Shown here piece after piece: positions 2,541 to 19,237 of a stretch of DNA of 64,000 nt. Below the pieces are notes generated by a model, which was not told the DNA's origin, did not search any database, and saw nothing but the letters and a program-made list of their open reading frames with translations. Each line of letters begins with the position of its first letter. Positions within the stretch are counted from its first letter, which is position 1. The position numbers were made by a program, and so were the translations under genes. The DNA comes from a virus: positions 1 to 64,000 of the IMG/VR virus record IMGVR_UViG_3300029448_008324. The stretch is one strand, 5' to 3'.

Positions 2541-3551
2541 ATGCAAACTTTTAAACGTGCGGCTGTGTTTGCTGACATACACTTTGGCAACAAAGGCAAT
2601 TCACGCCAGTTCAATGAAGACTGTGATCGTTATGTGGACTGGTTCGTTGAACACGCCCAATCACAAAACTGTGACACTTGTATTTTCTTGGGTGATTGGC
2701 ATCATCAACGTGCCACACTAAACATTACCACACTGCAACATTCACTGCAAAACTTAGAAAAAATTGCAAATGCATTCGAAAACAATCATTTTATTGTTGG
2801 CAATCATGACTTATATTACAAAGATTCTCGTGCTGTAAATTCAATTGAATTTGCTAAACACATCAAAAATTTAAACCTAATTCTGGAACCATATTACACA
2901 GAGGATTGTGCGTTTATTCCGTGGTTGGTATCAGAGGAATGGAAGCAACTCAAAGACATGCCGGCAAAGCCGTACGTGTTCGGCCACTTTGAGTTGCCAC
3001 ACTTCCTTATGAATGCAATGGTGTCCATGCCTGACACAAATGAATTGAGCGGCAATGACTTGAATCATCATGGCTATGTGTTTTCAGGACACTTTCACAA
3101 AAGACAAATGAAAGGCAATATTCACTACATTGGCAACGCATTTCCACACAACTATTCAGATGCCAACGACTTTAGACGTGGTTATATGGTGCTGGAACAT
3201 GGTGGAGATCCTGTGTATCATGATTGGCCCAACATGCCTGTGTATCAAACACTTAAACTTAGTGAACTCCTACACAACGCATCCATACTTAAAAAACGTG
3301 CATATGTGAGAGTGGACATAGACACAGAGATTACATATGAAGAATCAAACTTTATAAAAGACACATTTATTGCACAACACACACTGCGTGAAATGACATT
3401 CATACAACAGCGTGACATCACACAGCATGACTCTACAGATTTAACACAAGCATTTGAGTCAATTGATGAAATTGTGCATTCACAACTAATGGCCGTTGAT
3501 TCTGAACACTATGACAGAAACTTGTTGCTAGAAATATACAAAAATTTATGA
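2541..3551 (+). CDS. 47: Recombination endonuclease subunit gp47 (SbcD/Mre11-like)
   Basis: A 336-aa metallophosphoesterase of the Mre11/SbcD type, the nuclease partner of gp46. Metal-binding motifs are in order: FADIHFG near 10-16, FLGDWHHQR near 50-58, VGNHDLYY near 91-98, FGHFELPH near 147-154 and SGHFHKRQ near 183-190. Length matches T4 gp47 (339 aa). The gp46 ATG overlaps its stop by 4 nt, the usual coupling of this pair. The complex makes recombinogenic ends during recombination-dependent replication and degrades host DNA. Confidence 0.93.
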   Translation: MQTFKRAAVFADIHFGNKGNSRQFNEDCDRYVDWFVEHAQSQNCDTCIFLGDWHHQRATLNITTLQHSLQNLEKIANAFENNHFIVGNHDLYYKDSRAVNSIEFAKHIKNLNLILEPYYTEDCAFIPWLVSEEWKQLKDMPAKPYVFGHFELPHFLMNAMVSMPDTNELSGNDLNHHGYVFSGHFHKRQMKGNIHYIGNAFPHNYSDANDFRRGYMVLEHGGDPVYHDWPNMPVYQTLKLSELLHNASILKKRAYVRVDIDTEITYEESNFIKDTFIAQHTLREMTFIQQRDITQHDSTDLTQAFESIDEIVHSQLMAVDSEHYDRNLLLEIYKNL

Positions 3552-10723: not shown

Positions 10724-10752
10724 ATTATAACACCAACACTATTTGTAGTCAA
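10724..10752 (-). promoter_or_regulatory. Host-type sigma70 promoter for the Ate1-like gene
   Basis: On the minus strand: TTGACT (10752-10747), 17 bp, TATAAT (10729-10724), ATG at 10717. The -35 box lies within the 3' end of the amidinotransferase gene. Confidence 0.65.
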
Positions 10753-11806
10753 TATAGGATTGACATTCACCTTCTCTGTATAGATCTTGCGTGACACAGT
10801 GAATTCCTCCATCAAAGAAAAATCTATGTCTCAAAGGACAAATAATGGGTACAATTTTGTGTTTTTTAAAAAAATCAAATACTTGTTTGTTGTAACTAGA
10901 TACCAACACAGTGTGTTCATTCAGCATCATACAATTGACATCAAACACAGTTTCTTCTACATACCCTAGCCAACTGTCTAACCATGAATTAACAAAGTCA
11001 AGCAATTCTTTGTTGTCTTCTTCTCCTGGTATCCAATATTTGCCGTAAGTTTTTTGTTTGGCTTGCATGAATTCAGGCAATTGGCCTATGTTACTGTCAT
11101 CCAAATAACACACTTCCCAGCCTGGAAATGTTTCTGTATATGTCATGATGTCATCTAATGATATGATAGCTCCTGGTTTCACAGTGTGGAAACACGAATC
11201 ATTATGGCCACCAATTTCAACCCAATGTATGTCAACTTCTGGCCACCATTTCTGTGCCCAGCGTTCGATGATGTTTCTTGAATTTGGATTGTATTCAACA
11301 AAATCATTCACTTCCCATTGATCGATATCAATAAACAAATCTTTGCCAACCAAAGTCCAACAAGGCGGATCTATAAATTTGATGTTATTTTTTATCAGCA
11401 AGTCATGCCACGGAGTGTTGCGTTGCAAAATATCTTCTGTGATAATTTCTGAAAAATAACCATCACTAGTTGCATGCTGATCAGAAAATATAAGATGTTG
11501 TCCTAACACAGAGAGTCGATTTCTTGGATATAACACTGGTTGAATGCCTTGAGCTTTTTGATCAGGATCAAGATACTTTGGGAATTTTTCTTTGTTGACT
11601 CTCACAACTTCAACACTCTGTTCACCACACACTTTGGCAATATTGTCTAGATCTTCTTGTGCTTCAATGACCAGTTGTTGTAATTTTTCTTTGATCTCAA
11701 TGTTTGCAACATGATCAAAATATTCAGGGGCAACACAATGACCAACCATTACTTTCTTGAGGTTATCCCATTTGGACCATACGTTGAAATCGTTTTGATT
11801 GGACAT
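10739..11806 (-). CDS. Amidinotransferase / pentein-fold enzyme
   Basis: A 355-aa protein of the pentein superfamily (glycine amidinotransferase and arginine deiminase relatives). The catalytic Cys is most likely in FFFDGGIHCVT near the C-terminus (about 337). GGHNDSCFHTVKPG near 200-213 supplies the conserved His region, and LYPRNRLSVLGQHLIF resembles the first substrate-binding segment. Length matches amidinotransferases (350-420 aa). Family members move an amidine group from arginine to an amine, or hydrolyse guanidines. It precedes the Ate1-like transferase by 21 nt. The substrate is unknown. Confidence 0.7.
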   Translation of the reverse strand: MSNQNDFNVWSKWDNLKKVMVGHCVAPEYFDHVANIEIKEKLQQLVIEAQEDLDNIAKVCGEQSVEVVRVNKEKFPKYLDPDQKAQGIQPVLYPRNRLSVLGQHLIFSDQHATSDGYFSEIITEDILQRNTPWHDLLIKNNIKFIDPPCWTLVGKDLFIDIDQWEVNDFVEYNPNSRNIIERWAQKWWPEVDIHWVEIGGHNDSCFHTVKPGAIISLDDIMTYTETFPGWEVCYLDDSNIGQLPEFMQAKQKTYGKYWIPGEEDNKELLDFVNSWLDSWLGYVEETVFDVNCMMLNEHTVLVSSYNKQVFDFFKKHKIVPIICPLRHRFFFDGGIHCVTQDLYREGECQSYIDYK

Positions 11807-12854: not shown

Positions 12855-13289
12855 TTATGAGGTGGCGGCTCGTGCTCTAACACGTGGTTTGGCAGAATAT
12901 GGTTTTTTGCCTACACTTTTGGATCGTTTCTTTTGAGCATCAAAGATCTTTGCAAACACAGCTTTAATGTAACCAGCATCAGGTCTGCCACCCTTCACTG
13001 TTTTTGACACGTCTAACACACGATCAACGTATTTCTCCATGCTAGGATCTTCTTTGAATATGCCCTGTAACCAAGATTGCAGTGCTAAACCATATTTTTT
13101 TTTAGCGCCAGGATCTTTCTGCACAATCTTTGGCCATTCCTTATCCCATTGATCGACCATGGCATTAACAGCTGCCATTTTCTTGGTGGGAGGCACATCG
13201 AATATGTTCAACATAGCACTTGTGGCACCTGTCACAGCTGATGCAACAGCGGAACCTAAATCTTCATGAATGATATCTCTAATTCTCAT
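12855..13289 (-). CDS. Virion-associated hypothetical protein with capsid-targeting-like N-terminus
   Basis: A 144-aa basic protein. It opens MRIRDIIHED, similar in shape to short capsid-targeting peptides of T4-like internal head proteins that are cut after an (I/L)-x-E site, here IHE followed by D. Two helical blocks and a Lys/Arg-rich C-terminus (KKPYSAKPRVRARAA) follow, suited to DNA binding. A perfect late box lies 8 nt upstream of its ATG. It may be an internal head protein or a tail-associated one; the peptide match is short. Confidence 0.5.
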   Translation of the reverse strand: MRIRDIIHEDLGSAVASAVTGATSAMLNIFDVPPTKKMAAVNAMVDQWDKEWPKIVQKDPGAKKKYGLALQSWLQGIFKEDPSMEKYVDRVLDVSKTVKGGRPDAGYIKAVFAKIFDAQKKRSKSVGKKPYSAKPRVRARAATS

Positions 13290-13297
13290 TGTGCTGA

Positions 13298-13305
13298 TAT
13301 TTATA
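13298..13305 (-). promoter_or_regulatory. Late promoter TATAAATA for the 144-aa virion gene
   Basis: A perfect T4-type late box on the minus strand, 8 nt before the ATG at 13289. The TAA inside the box is also the stop codon of the frameshifted tail-chaperone extension. Confidence 0.75.
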
Positions 13306-13531
13306 GCAATGGCATTTTGGTCTTCTTGACTGTTTCAATGTTTTGTTTGATCAAAGTGTGCAACATGCGTCGATCATCATTGCACAAATTATAGGCTTCT
13401 GTCAAACTAACACTGCCTCTCATATACCAACAGATGCTATGCAGATCATCTTTGATCTGCTTGTTTTCATTATCTAGTTCTTTGAAGTATGCTACGAGGT
13501 CAGGTTCCGAGAGCGAGAGGATTTTGGCACG
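13301..13531 (-). CDS. Tail-chaperone extension read by -1 ribosomal frameshift (76 codons)
   Basis: Open frame without any ATG, GTG or TTG near its start. In this frame a TAA stop sits directly before the run TTTTTTC (13537-13531), which is the slippery heptamer T TTT TTC in the frame of the upstream gp26-like gene. A -1 slip there would give a 358-aa fusion (282 aa plus 76). The extension contains ICWYMRGSVSLTEAYNLC, then DDRRMLHTLIKQNIET, which resembles the second half of frameshifted tail assembly chaperones. Coding is clean to a TAA at 13303-13301. It is not expressible as a normal gene. Confidence 0.75.
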   Translation of the reverse strand, partial: RAKILSLSEPDLVAYFKELDNENKQIKDDLHSICWYMRGSVSLTEAYNLCNDDRRMLHTLIKQNIETVKKTKMPLL

Positions 13532-14376
13532 AAAAAATTAGAGTTGTCCATGGAAATTTGTGTTTGATACGATTTTGGTGCACCTTTTTCTATCAACTCT
13601 GCAGGTGTTACAATGTCCACAGGAGGAATAGTGCCTTTGTTTTTTTCACGATCAATGTGATCGCGAATCTCATTAGCATATTTGGTTTCAATGTTATGAA
13701 CCCATTCTTTAATAAACACAGGATCAATCACTGCTTCATCTTGGTCTGGCATCTTGATGCTGACAATCATGTCTGTAATGGCTTTCACAGAAAGTTCGCC
13801 TATTTTAGCAAAAATCTTGTTAAACTCTTCCAGCTTCTGCTGTTCGGTCATTGTCGAATCCTGCACAGTTCTAATAAGCCTTTGTTCTTCATAGCTTTTT
13901 AGATTCTGTTGACTGATGCCACGATAGTTCATAGGTTTCAAATTGACCACCAATCCATTGCTTAACTGCATGACATCACCCCAAGGTTCATATGAAATTC
14001 TTTCCAACATGGTACTGAGATGCACCTGGACCGTGTTACTTTCTTGTGTGTTGGGCACCGCTGTGGTGACATCCATCATCTCACCATAGGTAGCAATTCT
14101 AATTCCTACTAACAGTGTGTCAGTGTCCATGGAAGGCACATGCCAAGGATCTTTGATAGCGGGTATGCATGACTTGAACACATCCACAGTGGCCTGTCCG
14201 TTCATGAGAGCATCTGGCGTGCGAATGGTCATTTCGTCTTTTGCAGTCATGGGCATGATGCCCACTTCGCCTTGATCATTAAGTTCAATGCAACCTGGTG
14301 GATACCAACGTCCCTGTGATGGCAAACGAACATATACTGCTGGTTGCCTAAAGTATGTAGATAGTGGGTTTGTCAT
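13492..14376 (-). CDS. 26: Baseplate/tail assembly protein, gp26-like (T4_baseplate family)
   Basis: A 294-aa protein matching the T4 baseplate family typified by gp26. It shows YFRQPAVYVRLPSQGRWYPPG at 8-28, then PMTAKDEMTIRTPDALMNGQ and SCIPAIKDPWHVP, then RIATYGEMMDV. It is longer than T4 gp26 (208 aa) because of a helical C-terminal half. The last 12 residues after Phe282 lie beyond a T TTT TTC slippery site that can send ribosomes into a 76-codon extension. Position directly opposite the tape-measure gene fits a tail-assembly chaperone role, which is inference. Confidence 0.8.
   Translation of the reverse strand: MTNPLSTYFRQPAVYVRLPSQGRWYPPGCIELNDQGEVGIMPMTAKDEMTIRTPDALMNGQATVDVFKSCIPAIKDPWHVPSMDTDTLLVGIRIATYGEMMDVTTAVPNTQESNTVQVHLSTMLERISYEPWGDVMQLSNGLVVNLKPMNYRGISQQNLKSYEEQRLIRTVQDSTMTEQQKLEEFNKIFAKIGELSVKAITDMIVSIKMPDQDEAVIDPVFIKEWVHNIETKYANEIRDHIDREKNKGTIPPVDIVTPAELIEKGAPKSYQTQISMDNSNFFVPKSSRSRNLTS
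13531..13537 (-). promoter_or_regulatory. Slippery heptamer TTTTTTC for -1 frameshifting
   Basis: On the minus strand, T TTT TTC in the zero frame (codons Phe281-Phe282). A -1 slip re-pairs as TTT TTT and continues CGT GCC AAA in the open downstream frame. A zero-frame stop follows 12 codons later. Confidence 0.75.
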
Positions 14377-14384
14377 TCAATAAA

Positions 14385-14407
14385 TATTTAACGTAACAGT
14401 ATTTATA
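14385..14407 (-). promoter_or_regulatory. Tandem late promoter boxes for the gp26-like gene
   Basis: A perfect TATAAATA on the minus strand at 14407-14400 and a second TAAATA at 14390-14385, the latter 8 nt before the ATG at 14376. The interval also serves the divergent tape-measure gene. Confidence 0.65.
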
Positions 14408-14417
14408 GCAGTATAAA

Positions 14418-16526
14418 ATGGACATACAAGACCTAGAAACAGCACTTAAACAAGGTAATATTCCTGCCTGGGCCACAGAAGAAACCTTGGCAAAAGTGGC
14501 AAAGGCCCTCAATGTCAAAGGTGGTATAGGTGATTTATCCAAGACTATTGGCAAAACTGGAGACACCAGCCCCAAGACATTTATTGGCGGATTGAATGCT
14601 GCCAGTAGTAGCACTAGAAAACTTTCAAAATCAGCCGACATTGCCAACAAAGCATTTTCCAGCATTCAATCAGTGACATCTGGTGCCGCAGGCATCGTGG
14701 GTGCATTGGCTCAAAGCAAAGGATCATTTTCAGATCTTAACCCCATCATAGACACTGTAGCCGATGGCATGGGCGAGTTGGCAGGAGCAATCCCCATTGT
14801 GGGAGGATTTTTTAAAGCACTGATTGGTTTCTCAGCAGAAATTGCCAAACTCAACAATGTGGTCTTGGACGATCTTATCGACAACTTTATGGCATTGAGC
14901 AAATCAGGATTAGGCCTATCATTTGACCTACAAACTATTCAATTGCGAGCATTGGAGGCAGGTGTGGGGTTTGAGACACTCACCAGTGCTGTGCTGAACA
15001 ATTTTGCAGGCATGATTGCGTTTGGCGGAAGCGTGGAAAATGCCACCAAACGATTTGCTGCCAGTCTCGACTTTCTCACTAACCCCAACAACCCAGAAGG
15101 ATTTGCATATGCCATGCAGTCTTTAGGATACGGTTCAGAACAAGCGGCAGAGTTCCTAGGACAATTTATTGAGCAAAACAGAAATTCACTGCGCCTACAA
15201 GGCTTGTCAGACAAAGAAGTGGCTGGAGTTGCTTTTGAGTATGCAAAAAGTCTTCAGGTGCTGTCCGAACTCACTGGTGTGCAGGTGGATGAAATCAGAG
15301 CCAATCAGTTGGCTCAAGTCACTGACGGTGCTTTCCAGGCCAAACTGCAACAGATGAGAAATGCCAACATGGCAGAAGAAGCCGATGCCACGCAGAAGTT
15401 TGCAGGAACCATGAGGGGCCTGAGTCCAGTTGTCGAAAAAGGATTCAAAGATGTCACAGCAGGTTTAATGACTCAGCAAACTGCTCTGTTACTAAGAACA
15501 GTGCCGGGTTTAGAAGAAGCATTCTTAGCCAGAGATGCTGAAGCTGTGCGGAATTTGTTGGCTGGATTAGCCAAGGATGGCGATGCACTGGAAATTGGTA
15601 CACTTGGTCTATTGGATGCAAGCAATCCTCTATCTCAATTGATCAATGATCTATTGCCAGCTGCACAGCGATTGTTAGGCATTGTGACAGCAGGACCTAC
15701 ACAGGAGGAACTAGAAAATCAACAACAGATACAAATGGATCGAATGACACAAAGCAACATTAATTTTGAAAGTTTCAATGACAATTTGGTGTTTGCTGGC
15801 AAACAGTTGGATATAGCAGGAAAGTCTATTCAGGCAGCCGTTATTGAGAAACTGATACCTGCCATGGAGGCACAACTGGCATTAACCGCAGAAGCATTAA
15901 GCAAGCTGACATCATTTATTAAGGATCCTTCAAGTATCTTCGAAACGGGAGATGGCCTAGGATTTTTTGACTTTGATCTTAAACCAAACGACCCTAACAA
16001 CGAGCCTGTCAATCTTTTGGATTTACTTTTAAATAGGAACACTAAACCTAAATTTGGCGGAGGTTCTGCAGGACAAGGTTTATATGTTGTGGGCGAACGT
16101 GGTCCGGAACTGTTGGCTCTGGAACAAGGATCCATGGGCCATGTGTATAACAATGGTCAAATGAAATCTATGTTGGGCAAACGTGAAAACGGAGGTCCAG
16201 TGCAAGGCATGCCTAGTATGGCAATGTTAGATTATTTAACAAGTGAAGGTATTGAAGGATCACGCAAATATGATGATGGCTTTGAGATTGCATACACTAA
16301 CACTCTAAATATGCCAAAAATAGATGAAGCAACTATGAAGGAATTCATAAAATACCAGAACAGTAAAAAAAATCTCAAATTTTCAGATACTCCGCAAATG
16401 GAAGATATAATATCTGACGTAGAATTCAAAGGTAATGGAGGTGCAGTGGTTGGAGAGATCAGAAACCTCAACAAAATGCTGAAAAGTTATATGGGCAAAA
16501 TCACATCAGGATCCAGTTATTTTTAA
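14418..16526 (+). CDS. Tail tape-measure protein
   Basis: A 702-aa, largely helical protein, somewhat longer than T4 gp29 (590 aa). It has a hydrophobic central segment (IPIVGGFFKALIGFSAEI near 123-140) as in tape measures that cross the membrane, long Ala/Gln/Leu-rich helices, and a LYVVGERGPELLALEQG motif near 555-571, the C-terminal signature common in phage tape measures. It lies next to the predicted frameshifted chaperone gene, the normal partner of a tape measure. It sets tail length during tube assembly. Equivalence to gp29 is by role rather than clear similarity. Confidence 0.8.
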   Translation: MDIQDLETALKQGNIPAWATEETLAKVAKALNVKGGIGDLSKTIGKTGDTSPKTFIGGLNAASSSTRKLSKSADIANKAFSSIQSVTSGAAGIVGALAQSKGSFSDLNPIIDTVADGMGELAGAIPIVGGFFKALIGFSAEIAKLNNVVLDDLIDNFMALSKSGLGLSFDLQTIQLRALEAGVGFETLTSAVLNNFAGMIAFGGSVENATKRFAASLDFLTNPNNPEGFAYAMQSLGYGSEQAAEFLGQFIEQNRNSLRLQGLSDKEVAGVAFEYAKSLQVLSELTGVQVDEIRANQLAQVTDGAFQAKLQQMRNANMAEEADATQKFAGTMRGLSPVVEKGFKDVTAGLMTQQTALLLRTVPGLEEAFLARDAEAVRNLLAGLAKDGDALEIGTLGLLDASNPLSQLINDLLPAAQRLLGIVTAGPTQEELENQQQIQMDRMTQSNINFESFNDNLVFAGKQLDIAGKSIQAAVIEKLIPAMEAQLALTAEALSKLTSFIKDPSSIFETGDGLGFFDFDLKPNDPNNEPVNLLDLLLNRNTKPKFGGGSAGQGLYVVGERGPELLALEQGSMGHVYNNGQMKSMLGKRENGGPVQGMPSMAMLDYLTSEGIEGSRKYDDGFEIAYTNTLNMPKIDEATMKEFIKYQNSKKNLKFSDTPQMEDIISDVEFKGNGGAVVGEIRNLNKMLKSYMGKITSGSSYF

Positions 16527-16565: not shown

Positions 16566-18293
16566 ATGAGTTGGAAAAAATATTTTAATTTAGTAACACC
16601 CGATGGCACCATGTCCCCGGTGTCAGGTGCCAACACAGCATCCAATCCGATGAGTGCTGTGGGACGCAGAAACTACACATCCTATTTGCCAGAAGTCTAC
16701 ACAGGTCATCCCAACAGGATGGAGCGTTACTTTCAATATGATCAAATGGATCAAGATTCAGAAGTCAATGCCGCACTGGACATCATTGCTGAATTCTGCA
16801 CACAACCCAACAAGCAAACTGAAACTCCTTTTGACCTACGCTACAAAGACAAACCCACAGAATCAGAAGCACTCATCTTAAGAGATGCACTCAAACAGTT
16901 TTCCACCATCAACGAATGGAACCGCAGAGCATTCAGAATGTTCCGCAACACACTCAAGTATGGTGATTCATTTTTTATTCGTGATCCAGAAACACAAGAA
17001 CTAATTCATGTTGCCGCATCCAAATGTGACAAAGTGATTGTGAATGAATCACAAGGCAAGCGACCAGAACAGTATGTGTTCAGAGATCTAAACTTAAATT
17101 TAGAATCGCTCAGTGCATCACAGGTGGCAGCCAATGTGACATATTCATCACCAGGATCATCTGCTGTGGCCGATTCAAACTATGGCGGTGGTCAACGTGG
17201 CATGGGCGGCGGTGCTGGCTTTGGAGGATCATATGGACAACAAGGAGGCAGATTTGAAACCACAGTTAATCAATATGCCATTGATGCCAATCATGTGTGT
17301 CACATCAGTCTCAGTGAAGGACTTGATTCAAACTTTCCATTTGGCACATCCACATTAGAGACTGTGTTTAAAACTTTTAAACAAAAAGAATTACTAGAAG
17401 ATGCAATTATAATTTACAGAGTGCATCGTGCTCCTGAAAGAAGAGTGTTCTACATTGATGTAGGCAACATGCCCACACACATGGCCATGGGATTTGTGGA
17501 ACGTGTGAAAAATGAAATACACCAAAGACGTATTCCTTCCATATCAGGTGGATCCAATTCAATCGATGCCACATACAATCCACTGTCAATCAACGAAGAC
17601 TACTTCTTTCCACAGACAGCAGAAGGCAGAGGTTCAAAAGTTGAAACACTACCAGGTGGAACCAACCTTGGTGAGATTGATGATCTAAGATATTTCACAA
17701 ACAAATTGTATCGTGCATTGAGGATTCCAAGTTCTTACTTGCCCACTGGTCCAGATGATGGAGCCAATCCACAGTATTCAGACGGCAGAGTTGGCACAGC
17801 ATACATCCAAGAGTTGAGATTCAACAAATACTGTGAAAGACTGCAGGAAATTGTGGTGCCATCCATTGATGTTGAGTTTAAAGTGTTCTTAAAAAACAGA
17901 GGCATCAACATAGACACATCTCTGTTTGATTTAAAATTTAACACACCACAAAACTTTGCCGCATACAGACAGATTGAACTTGACAATCAGCGGGTGCAGG
18001 CATTCACACAGATTGAGCAAGTGCCATATCTATCAAAAAGATTTGCACTCAAGCGTTTCTTAGGCTTGTCAGAAGAAGAAATGGCACAGAATCAAAAGAT
18101 GTGGTCAGAAGAAAAAGGCGAAAGCAAAGACGATGCTGTGCAGGGTGCTGATCTTAGAAACGTTGGCGTCACTGGAGGAGGCATTGCAGCCGATCTTGAT
18201 GCTCAGACTGGAGAAGTAGAACCAGAAGGCGACATTGAAGCAGGTGAAGAAGGTGAAGGCATCGGCGGCGACGAGGGCGACGTTGAAGTGTGA
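16566..18293 (+). CDS. 20: Portal vertex protein gp20
   Basis: A 575-aa portal protein, near the T4 length of 524 aa. Recognisable segments are QDSEVNAALDIIAEFC near 60-75, FRNTLKYGDSFFIRDPE near 120-136, and DDLRYFTNKLYRALRIPSSYL near 368-388. A Gly-rich insertion lies around residues 205-225 and the C-terminus is very acidic. The dodecameric portal starts head assembly and forms the DNA channel and terminase docking site. The next gene starts in an overlapping GTGA. Confidence 0.93.
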   Translation: MSWKKYFNLVTPDGTMSPVSGANTASNPMSAVGRRNYTSYLPEVYTGHPNRMERYFQYDQMDQDSEVNAALDIIAEFCTQPNKQTETPFDLRYKDKPTESEALILRDALKQFSTINEWNRRAFRMFRNTLKYGDSFFIRDPETQELIHVAASKCDKVIVNESQGKRPEQYVFRDLNLNLESLSASQVAANVTYSSPGSSAVADSNYGGGQRGMGGGAGFGGSYGQQGGRFETTVNQYAIDANHVCHISLSEGLDSNFPFGTSTLETVFKTFKQKELLEDAIIIYRVHRAPERRVFYIDVGNMPTHMAMGFVERVKNEIHQRRIPSISGGSNSIDATYNPLSINEDYFFPQTAEGRGSKVETLPGGTNLGEIDDLRYFTNKLYRALRIPSSYLPTGPDDGANPQYSDGRVGTAYIQELRFNKYCERLQEIVVPSIDVEFKVFLKNRGINIDTSLFDLKFNTPQNFAAYRQIELDNQRVQAFTQIEQVPYLSKRFALKRFLGLSEEEMAQNQKMWSEEKGESKDDAVQGADLRNVGVTGGGIAADLDAQTGEVEPEGDIEAGEEGEGIGGDEGDVEV

Positions 18294-19237
18294 AGACGTG
18301 CTCAGTCTTTTGGAAGCACATAAACATTCGTGGAGACAACAGAATATTCCCATGTTGCCGTTTCAAAAAACCTGTTGCAACTTACACAGGTGATCTCGAT
18401 CACCTATTAACATCCAAAACATTCCAAGATCTCAGAAACACAGACGTCAGCACAATGCCAGAATGTGCCAAGTGCATGTATGAAGAAGACAACGGCATAA
18501 CCAGTTTTAGACAAAAATTCAATCAACAATTAGACACTGCCACAGTTGGATTAGAATACTTGGAAATTGGGTTTGACAACATTTGTAACCTTACCTGTGA
18601 TGGTTGTTACCCAGAATTCAGTTCAGCATGGAGTAAAAAATTAAATCCACACGCACACAAAAGCACACACTACACATCGATCAACGAAATCACAGCCATA
18701 CCTGACACAGTCAACAAGATCATGTTCCTTGGTGGCGAACCATTGATGACTTCACGCCATAAAAAAGTGCTGGAGATGATTGCTGATCCAAGCAAAGTCA
18801 AAATATCATACAACACCAATGCAACTTTCCTGCTTGATAATGATTTGATCAATATTCTAAAACAATTCAAGCATGTACACTTCATAGTGAGCATTGATGG
18901 ATACAAAGAACTCAATGAAAAGGTCAGAACAGGAACAAAATGGAGTGATGTTGAAGCATTTATCAAACAGATCCAAGAGAACGGATTTGAAATGAGTGTA
19001 AACAGTGTGATACACTTGAACAATTGGCAAGGAATGCCAGATCTTGAACGATTTGTGGAGACACTGGACCTCACAGCACCACACTACGGCACTGGACTAG
19101 CACCTTGGTACGTGAACATACTGACTTATCCTTTGCATCTTGATATCAGGAATGCAAAAAACAAACAAGAAATTGTTGATGTCATTGCAAAAACAGATAT
19201 CCCCAACAAAGAATATGTGCTCAATCACTTGTCCTAA
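18290..19237 (+). CDS. Twitch-domain radical SAM protein (copy A)
   Basis: A 315-aa radical SAM protein starting with GTG that overlaps the gp20 stop. The 4Fe-4S motif is CNLTCDGC (C99, C103, C106). An N-terminal FPCC (C22, C23) and a CAKC pair (C59, C62) look like an auxiliary twitch cluster placed before the SAM domain. IMFLGGEPL and FIVSIDG segments continue the barrel. Architecture matches the radical SAM gene at 59328. It splits the conserved gp20-gp21 head block, so it is a late-expressed insertion. Substrate unknown; peptide or sugar modification is plausible. Confidence 0.8.
   Translation: MKTCSVFWKHINIRGDNRIFPCCRFKKPVATYTGDLDHLLTSKTFQDLRNTDVSTMPECAKCMYEEDNGITSFRQKFNQQLDTATVGLEYLEIGFDNICNLTCDGCYPEFSSAWSKKLNPHAHKSTHYTSINEITAIPDTVNKIMFLGGEPLMTSRHKKVLEMIADPSKVKISYNTNATFLLDNDLINILKQFKHVHFIVSIDGYKELNEKVRTGTKWSDVEAFIKQIQENGFEMSVNSVIHLNNWQGMPDLERFVETLDLTAPHYGTGLAPWYVNILTYPLHLDIRNAKNKQEIVDVIAKTDIPNKEYVLNHLS

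What the first reader, a model, noticed from the sequence alone, without database searches (positions are those of the whole stretch)
13301..14376. Programmed -1 frameshift in the gp26-like tail gene
The zero frame holds T TTT TTC at Phe281-282. In the -1 frame a stop lies just before this heptamer, then 76 clean codons follow with no usable start codon, ending at the late box of the next gene. The extension looks like the second half of gpG-T type tail chaperones, and the gene sits beside the tape measure. Frameshifted tail chaperones are established in many siphoviruses and P2-like phages; I am not sure this has been described for T4-like phages, where gp26 and gp51 are separate genes.
Basis: partly seen in the sequence, partly recalled or inferred. 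Interest (0 to 1): 0.78.

Follow-up and report, generated by a model that had tools for sequence, protein, structure and literature searches.

The report
Frameshifted tail chaperone in T4-related phage
A gene of this marine T4-related virus ends in a slippery site, kept letter for letter in hundreds of relatives, where ribosomes should slip back one base to make a second, longer version of a tail-building helper protein; T4 itself makes the two versions from two separate genes instead.

Summary
On the minus strand a 294-codon gp26-like gene (13492-14376) carries T TTT TTC at 13537-13531, and a 76-codon -1 frame follows, ending at 13301. It is not chance. All 80 loci of a scan made with the N-terminal half only keep the heptamer. 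The codon before Phe-Phe changes residue but always ends in T. The extension evolves as -1-frame protein (third-position changes, 7881 synonymous against 3422 non-synonymous) and folds confidently in AlphaFold2.

The site occurs in most named jumbo relatives checked (RaK2, GAP32, Atu_ph07, 121Q and others), in cyanophages (77/77 metagenomic loci), KVP40-type and Aeromonas AS-zj phages. Their genomes hold one PF12322 gene; T4 holds two. In T4, gp26 has lost the heptamer and gp51 carries the extension in frame. Best reading: a lambda G/GT-type tail assembly chaperone pair made by -1 programmed frameshifting, with T4's gp26/gp51 split probably derived.

Frameshifted tail chaperones are well known, and a 2022 Virology paper on T4-like chaperones, which I could not read, may already mention poly-T sites. 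A sister clade (67 loci) carries its extension in the +1/-2 frame at TTTTTTTGGCCT, which looks less expected. No protein-level evidence exists.

The parts
13492..14376 (-). gp26-like gene, zero frame, 294 aa: short chaperone form (TAC-N), Pfam T4_baseplate PF12322
   Evidence: Pfam E 8.7e-9; phrog_150 baseplate hub E 3.9e-15; AlphaFold2 pLDDT 87, disordered only at 284-294, after the shift site
13531..13537 (-). slippery heptamer T TTT TTC, codons 281-282
   Evidence: direct sequence; present in 80/80 relatives from an N-terminal-only scan
13538..13540 (-). TAA stop of the -1 frame directly before the heptamer, so the -1 frame cannot be entered from upstream
13301..13531 (-). -1 frame extension, 76 codons plus TAA (C-terminal part of the long form TAC-NC; fusion 358 aa)
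   Evidence: open frame; homologous -1 extensions of about 65-77 codons in all relatives examined; invariant R1 W35 M37 R38 G39 R54; purifying selection; AlphaFold2 pLDDT 93, four helices
13492..13530 (-). zero-frame tail after the shift site (12 codons plus stop), predicted disordered and of variable length in relatives (1-12 codons)
14400..14407 (-). T4-type late promoter box TATAAATA upstream of the gp26-like gene
   Evidence: a TATAAATA within 150 nt upstream in 34 of 62 relatives
13298..13305 (-). late promoter box of the next gene (12855-13289), overlapping the stop of the -1 frame
14418..16526 (+). divergently transcribed 702-aa gene, candidate tape measure protein
   Evidence: position next to the chaperone in 59 of 62 relatives; profile match to the RaK2/GAP32/Phosso counterpart (hhalign 99.3%, hmmsearch 2e-37 to 3e-7); the CBB counterpart CBB_251 is a virion protein with 29 peptides; tape-measure role itself inferred
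16566..18293 (+). portal protein gp20 (T4-like context)
   Evidence: Pfam PF07230 E 2e-105

Best explanation
The gene makes two tail assembly chaperones from one message. Most ribosomes read to the zero-frame stop and make the 294-aa short form (TAC-N, gp26-like). A minority slip back one base at U UUU UUC (tRNA-Phe re-pairs from UUU/UUC to UUU/UUU) and make a 358-aa long form, 282 shared residues plus a 76-residue helical C-terminal domain (TAC-NC), which corresponds to the C-terminal part of T4 gp51. By analogy with lambda gpG/gpGT, the common part should coat the tape measure protein and the extension should recruit tube subunits. Shown here: the site, its strict conservation, coding selection on the -1 frame, and homology of both parts to T4 gp26/gp51 (for the extension, through intermediate families). 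Inferred: that slippage occurs, its efficiency, and the chaperone role. In T4 the same pair is encoded by two paralogous genes, most likely a derived arrangement.
For: Heptamer in 80/80 loci found with residues 1-185 only and in 80/80 from the full-length query. In 64 representatives the preceding codon varies (N, H, S, D, T, Y, R) but always ends in T, and the Phe codons are always TTT TTC although TTT:TTC elsewhere in the gene is 427:208; none of 12 other Phe-Phe pairs gives T TTT TTC. Extension changes by codon position 3510/1503/9541, syn 7881 vs non 3422 against a random expectation of about 1:3; no such pattern after its stop. The pattern starts at the first extension codons. Named phages Atu_ph07, Phosso, BF, Ps 30-3, Vibrio 2.275, RaK2, GAP32, CBB, XaC1, SCTP-2, Munch, 121Q, XbC2, Kaldavass all have TTTTTTC plus a 70-77 aa -1 extension; so do cyanophage loci 77/77 and P-SSM7, KVP40-type VH1_2019, AS-zj, PhiW-14. 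Cyanophage extension vs T4 gp51 C-terminus: hhalign 96.5%, E 9e-10. Genomes with the site hold one PF12322 gene where the model detects any (SCTP-2: none detected); T4 and a Klebsiella T4-type phage hold two. T4 gp26 keeps the Phe-Phe but as G TTC TTT. Tree: -1 state on both sides of the midpoint root.
Against: No protein-level evidence for the fusion. No Shine-Dalgarno-like stimulator (1 of 64) and no conserved downstream hairpin (window z +1.2; mean z -0.8). The gene is divergent from, not upstream of, the candidate tape measure, unlike the classical operon order. Direct profile match of the window-type extension to gp51 is weak (9.6%, E 0.003) and is carried by intermediates. PDB fold searches found nothing. 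The CBB virion list lacks the short form, but the RaK2 paper does not list gp087 among predicted structural proteins missed by MS, which may mean it was seen in virions.
Confidence: 0.9

Rival explanations
1. The extension is a separate small gene (a 'gp51') started inside the -1 frame, for example at the conserved Met37, as GenBank annotates in several phages.
For: Small ORFs of 32-71 aa are annotated there in many phages; M37 is invariant.
Against: Conservation and third-position bias begin at extension codon 1 (R1 and W35 invariant; codons 1-12: 223/40/839, codons 13-36: 1373/712/3275). Only 4 of 64 loci have an SD-like motif before any start codon in the first 36 codons. It does not explain the strictly conserved heptamer.
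Confidence: 0.04
2. The frame change arises by RNA polymerase slippage on the T6 run, not by the ribosome.
For: A run of six T is present in every case.
Against: The run is held at exactly T6C in one codon phase in all 80 relatives, although slippage would favour longer runs and not require the C. In the sister clade the T run is held in another phase, with the preceding base never T. Six T are few for bacterial RNA polymerase slippage (general knowledge).
Confidence: 0.03
3. The frameshift is real, but the two products are structural baseplate-hub isoforms, as the 'baseplate hub' annotations say, not tape-measure chaperones.
For: The Pfam/PHROG names and older T4 genetics place gp26 in the hub; RaK2 MS may have seen the short form in virions.
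Against: T4 gp26 and gp51 are listed as hub assembly chaperones and gp51 is absent from the final particle (PMC3004832); the CBB virion list lacks the protein; its neighbour is the candidate tape measure in 59/62 loci.
Confidence: 0.1
4. Sequencing error or decaying gene.
For: A single metagenome-derived record.
Against: The same arrangement in about 80 independent contigs and over a dozen cultured phages, under purifying selection.
Confidence: 0.003

Closest known systems
Lambda gpG/gpGT tail assembly chaperones (Levin 1993; Xu 2004, 2013, 2014)
   Same: One gene, -1 heptamer close to its 3' end, a short conserved C-terminal extension in the -1 frame, next to the tape measure.
   Different: Different protein family (PF12322), heptamer U UUU UUC instead of lambda's, gene divergent from the candidate tape measure; ratio and binding untested.
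T4 gp26 and gp51 (tail assembly chaperones of T4-like phages, Vladimirov et al. 2022, Virology 566:9; not readable here)
   Same: Homologous short and long forms; gp51 is a gp26-like domain plus an extension related to the -1 extension.
   Different: T4 has two separate genes and no heptamer in gp26; this lineage has one gene and a frameshift.
Pakpunavirus Adele / Andersonviridae TAC frameshift at GTTTTT (PMC12846349)
   Same: Myovirus TAC with a poly-T -1 site, extension unannotated in GenBank records.
   Different: Another TAC lineage and another slippery motif; only a weak fold resemblance seen (Moogle tape measure chaperone, TM 0.48, E 3.7).
RaK2-like jumbo phages (RaK2, GAP32, CBB, 121Q), Atu_ph07, Phosso
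   Same: Same gene, same heptamer, same extension; portal / tape measure / chaperone order shared by RaK2, GAP32, CBB, 121Q and Phosso.
   Different: Extension annotated as separate tiny hypothetical ORFs or not at all; the CBB, RaK2, Atu_ph07 and jumbo-capsid papers checked do not mention frameshifting.

Membership tests
[quoted passage not shown]
   T TTT TTC at codons 281-282 of 294; 80/80 relatives
Frameshift-encoded tail assembly chaperone pair (lambda G/GT kind) | Extension in the -1 frame conserved as protein, without its own translation start | tested here: met
   Codon-position and syn/non-syn pattern, conservation from codon 1, almost no SD-like motifs
Frameshift-encoded tail assembly chaperone pair (lambda G/GT kind) | Adjacent to the tape measure gene | tested here: met
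   Adjacent in 59/62 relatives, but divergently transcribed rather than directly upstream; tape-measure identity by position and by a profile link to a virion protein
Frameshift-encoded tail assembly chaperone pair (lambda G/GT kind) | Neither product in the finished virion | tested here: inconclusive
   Absent from the CBB virion list; RaK2 text does not list gp087 among the undetected proteins
Frameshift-encoded tail assembly chaperone pair (lambda G/GT kind) | Short and long products made in a fixed ratio; binding to tape measure and tube protein | not testable with these tools
   Needs protein experiments
T4-type chaperones gp26/gp51 (PF12322) | Homology of the short form to PF12322 / gp26 | tested here: met
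   Pfam E 8.7e-9; hhalign with the cyanophage gp26 family 97.8% and of that with T4 gp26 97.0%
T4-type chaperones gp26/gp51 (PF12322) | Two separate paralogous genes | tested here: not met
   One PF12322 gene in the 108-kb record, which may be a fragment; one in the heptamer-bearing named genomes where the model detects any (none detected in SCTP-2), two in T4
T4-type chaperones gp26/gp51 (PF12322) | Extension homologous to the gp51 C-terminal part | tested here: inconclusive
   Direct match weak (E 0.003); linked through Mel-clade (95.2%) and cyanophage (96.6%) extensions, the latter to gp51 at 96.5%, E 9e-10

The most novel reading that the evidence does not exclude
Across the T4 superfamily, -1 frameshifting at U UUU UUC is the ancestral and commonest way to make the gp26/gp51 chaperone pair. 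T4's two-gene pair is a late replacement by gene duplication, and a large sister clade (Microcystis phage Mel-JY01 type) has switched to a +1 (or -2) shift at an almost invariant TTTTTTTGGCCT, holding the base before the run away from T (never T, against always T in the -1 clades).
Probability: 0.5. Interest if true: 0.75.

Novelty: new member of a known kind. Interest (0 to 1): 0.6.

Why it matters
T4 is the textbook contractile phage and is cited as the exception to frameshifted tail chaperones (PMC5009743: conserved 'except T4'). The data suggest that T4 is an exception within its own superfamily, and they explain the puzzling tiny 'gp51' genes annotated in marine phages as pieces of a frameshift product. 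They give a clean natural series (-1 shift, +1/-2 shift, two genes) in one protein family for studying how a fixed protein ratio is kept when its decoding mechanism changes. Annotation of jumbo phage and cyanophage genomes should be corrected accordingly.

Tried and rejected
Selection bias: one pattern of the first scan (MDNSNFFV) covered the site, so the scan was repeated with residues 1-185 only; the result was the same, 80/80. Stimulatory elements: an upstream SD-like motif (1/64) and a downstream hairpin (window z +1.2) are not conserved. Structure comparison: the zero-frame model has no PDB match below E 0.6; the extension model has none in the PDB and only unnamed small phage proteins in BFVD (E about 0.1, TM up to 0.81). 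Tape measure: direct BLASTP of the 702-aa neighbour with CBB_251 and the Phosso counterpart gave nothing; only profiles linked them. Direct homology of the window-type extension to gp51 is weak and rests on intermediates. Literature: the 2022 T4-like chaperone paper is not held; searches for TTTTTTC, gp26 plus frameshift, and cyanophage plus chaperone plus frameshift gave no paper describing this site, as far as titles, abstracts and the passages read show. A separate gp51 was sought in the window's own record with T4 gp51: nothing, but a match that distant might be missed.

Full report
Observation. On the minus strand of the window a gp26-like gene runs from 14376 to 13492 (294 codons plus stop). 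Codons 281-282 are Phe-Phe, written T TTT TTC (13537-13531). In the -1 frame a TAA stands directly before the heptamer (13540-13538); after it come 76 sense codons and a TAA at 13303-13301. By composition an open run of 76 codons has p about 0.009; of 122 zero-frame heptamers in 84 window ORFs only four have a -1 frame that clearly passes the stop, and I judge the other three to be an ordinary gene overlap and two spurious ORFs. That alone would be suggestive. Conservation makes it firm.

Conservation of the site. A scan of IMG/VR with the whole protein gave 80 relatives at 34-49% identity; all 80 have TTTTTTC at the same place and a homologous -1 extension of 75-77 codons where the contig does not end first. 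One search pattern covered the site itself, so I repeated the scan with residues 1-185 only: again 80 of 80. In 64 representatives less than 85% identical, the residue before Phe-Phe varies (Asn, His, Ser, Asp, Thr, Tyr, Arg) but its codon always ends in T, and the Phe codons are always TTT then TTC, although the gene elsewhere uses TTT 427 times and TTC 208 times. None of 12 other Phe-Phe pairs reads T TTT TTC. The chance per sequence is about 0.12.

Selection on the extension. Between related loci the substitutions in the extension fall 3510/1503/9541 on the three codon positions of the -1 frame, with 7881 synonymous against 3422 non-synonymous codon changes; random changes would give about one to three. 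The 150 bases after its stop show no such pattern. The pattern is already there in the first 12 codons, and R1, W35, M37, R38, G39 and R54 are invariant. AlphaFold2 gives the extension a confident four-helix fold (pLDDT 93); in the zero-frame model (pLDDT 87) only residues 284-294, those after the shift site, are disordered. The extension is therefore a protein domain joined to the first 282 residues.

Named phages. The same heptamer and extension are present in Agrobacterium phage Atu_ph07, Sinorhizobium phage Phosso, Serratia BF, Pseudomonas 30-3, Vibrio 2.275, RaK2, GAP32, CBB, XaC1, SCTP-2, Munch, 121Q, XbC2 and Kaldavass, where the extension is annotated as tiny hypothetical ORFs or not at all. 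In cyanophages 77 of 77 deduplicated IMG/VR loci carry TTTTTTC just before the gp26 stop, with a -1 extension of mostly 50-61 codons beyond it; the preceding codon again always ends in T. P-SSM7, KVP40-type VH1_2019, Aeromonas AS-zj and Delftia PhiW-14 have it too; HTVC008M and phiM7 read T TTT TTT. The annotated 'gp51' genes of P-SSM7, HTVC008M and phiM7 lie inside this extension.

Relation to T4. Profile comparison links the window-type and cyanophage short forms (97.8%), the latter with T4 gp26 (97.0%) and gp51 (93.7%), T4 gp26 with gp51 (97.6%), and the cyanophage extension with the last 43 residues or so of gp51 (96.5%, E 9e-10). The window-type extension is linked through the Mel-clade extensions (95.2%) and those with the cyanophage ones (96.6%); its direct match to gp51 is weak (E 0.003). 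PF12322 ends at the Phe-Phe. Named genomes with the heptamer carry one PF12322 gene where the model detects any (none was detected in SCTP-2); T4 and a Klebsiella T4-type phage carry two; the window's 108-kb record carries one. In T4 gp26 the Phe-Phe is kept but written G TTC TTT, so the heptamer is gone. A quick tree puts the -1 state on both sides of its midpoint root, with the two-gene and the +1 states on few branches. The simplest reading is that frameshifting is the older state and T4's pair replaced it. Rooting and deep branches are uncertain.

Function. Tail assembly chaperones of long-tailed phages are made as a short and a frameshifted long form in a fixed ratio (lambda gpG/gpGT; reviewed in PMC5009743, which names T4 as the exception). 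T4 gp26 and gp51 are listed as hub assembly chaperones, and gp51 is not in the final particle (PMC3004832). The gene beside ours, divergently transcribed in 59 of 62 relatives, matches by profile the 'structural protein' of RaK2-like phages that is found in CBB virions with 29 peptides, while the CBB list lacks the gp26-like protein. The RaK2 paper is ambiguous on this point. I therefore infer a chaperone pair acting on the tape measure; binding, ratio and slippage itself are untested. No stimulatory hairpin or Shine-Dalgarno element was found, so the efficiency could be low, as in lambda; that is inference.

A side finding. Relatives of Microcystis phage Mel-JY01 (67 deduplicated loci) have no TTTTTTC. 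Their short gene has TTT TTT TGG CCT (62 of 67; two read TTT TTT TAC CCT, three CTT TTT TGG CCT), and the homologous extension, mostly 60-78 codons beyond the stop, is in the +1 (equally -2) frame. The base before the first TTT codon is never T, the opposite of the -1 clades, and the extension again shows coding selection. The direction of the shift therefore seems to have changed within one family.

Novelty. Frameshifted chaperones are a known kind. For T4-like phages, Vladimirov et al. [quoted passage not shown] PMC10885494 reports from it a separate short gene and long fusion gene, whereas PMC12846349 credits it with poly-T sites in T4-like phages. I could not read it, so I file the finding as a new member of a known kind and put the broader evolutionary reading under the novel case.

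Noticed in passing
L154:3734-3760 and L241-L320 (Mel-JY01-type loci): Sister clade of the gp26-like gene: almost invariant TTTTTTTGGCCT, extension in the +1 or -2 frame in 67 loci, base before the run never T; coding selection on the extension.
   Followed up: partly
L327:3301-3396, L321:3253-3390, L324:3214-3375: The 'gp51 baseplate hub assembly catalyst' genes annotated in P-SSM7, HTVC008M and phiM7 are pieces of the gp26 -1 extension, not separate genes.
   Followed up: yes
L090:3803-4429: T4 gp26 keeps the Phe-Phe motif but as G TTC TTT, so the slippery site is lost in the phage that has a separate gp51.
   Followed up: yes
L323:3161-3320: Salmonella phage SFP10 (Ackermannviridae) has a gp51-like -1 open frame after gp26 but no canonical heptamer (...GAG ATT TTC ATT TAA); how it is reached is unclear.
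   Followed up: no
L153:3741-3747: Stenotrophomonas phage CM1 has T TTT TTT instead of T TTT TTC, with an 80-codon -1 extension.
   Followed up: no
L160:3735-3790: Uncultured 484-kb phage LR756508: homologous extension in the +1 frame near TTTCTATTCCCTACC, without a T run.
   Followed up: no
window 10739-11806 (-) and 18290-19237 (+): Two unusual genes near the structural region, by eye an amidinotransferase-like and a radical-SAM-like protein; not tested.
   Followed up: no
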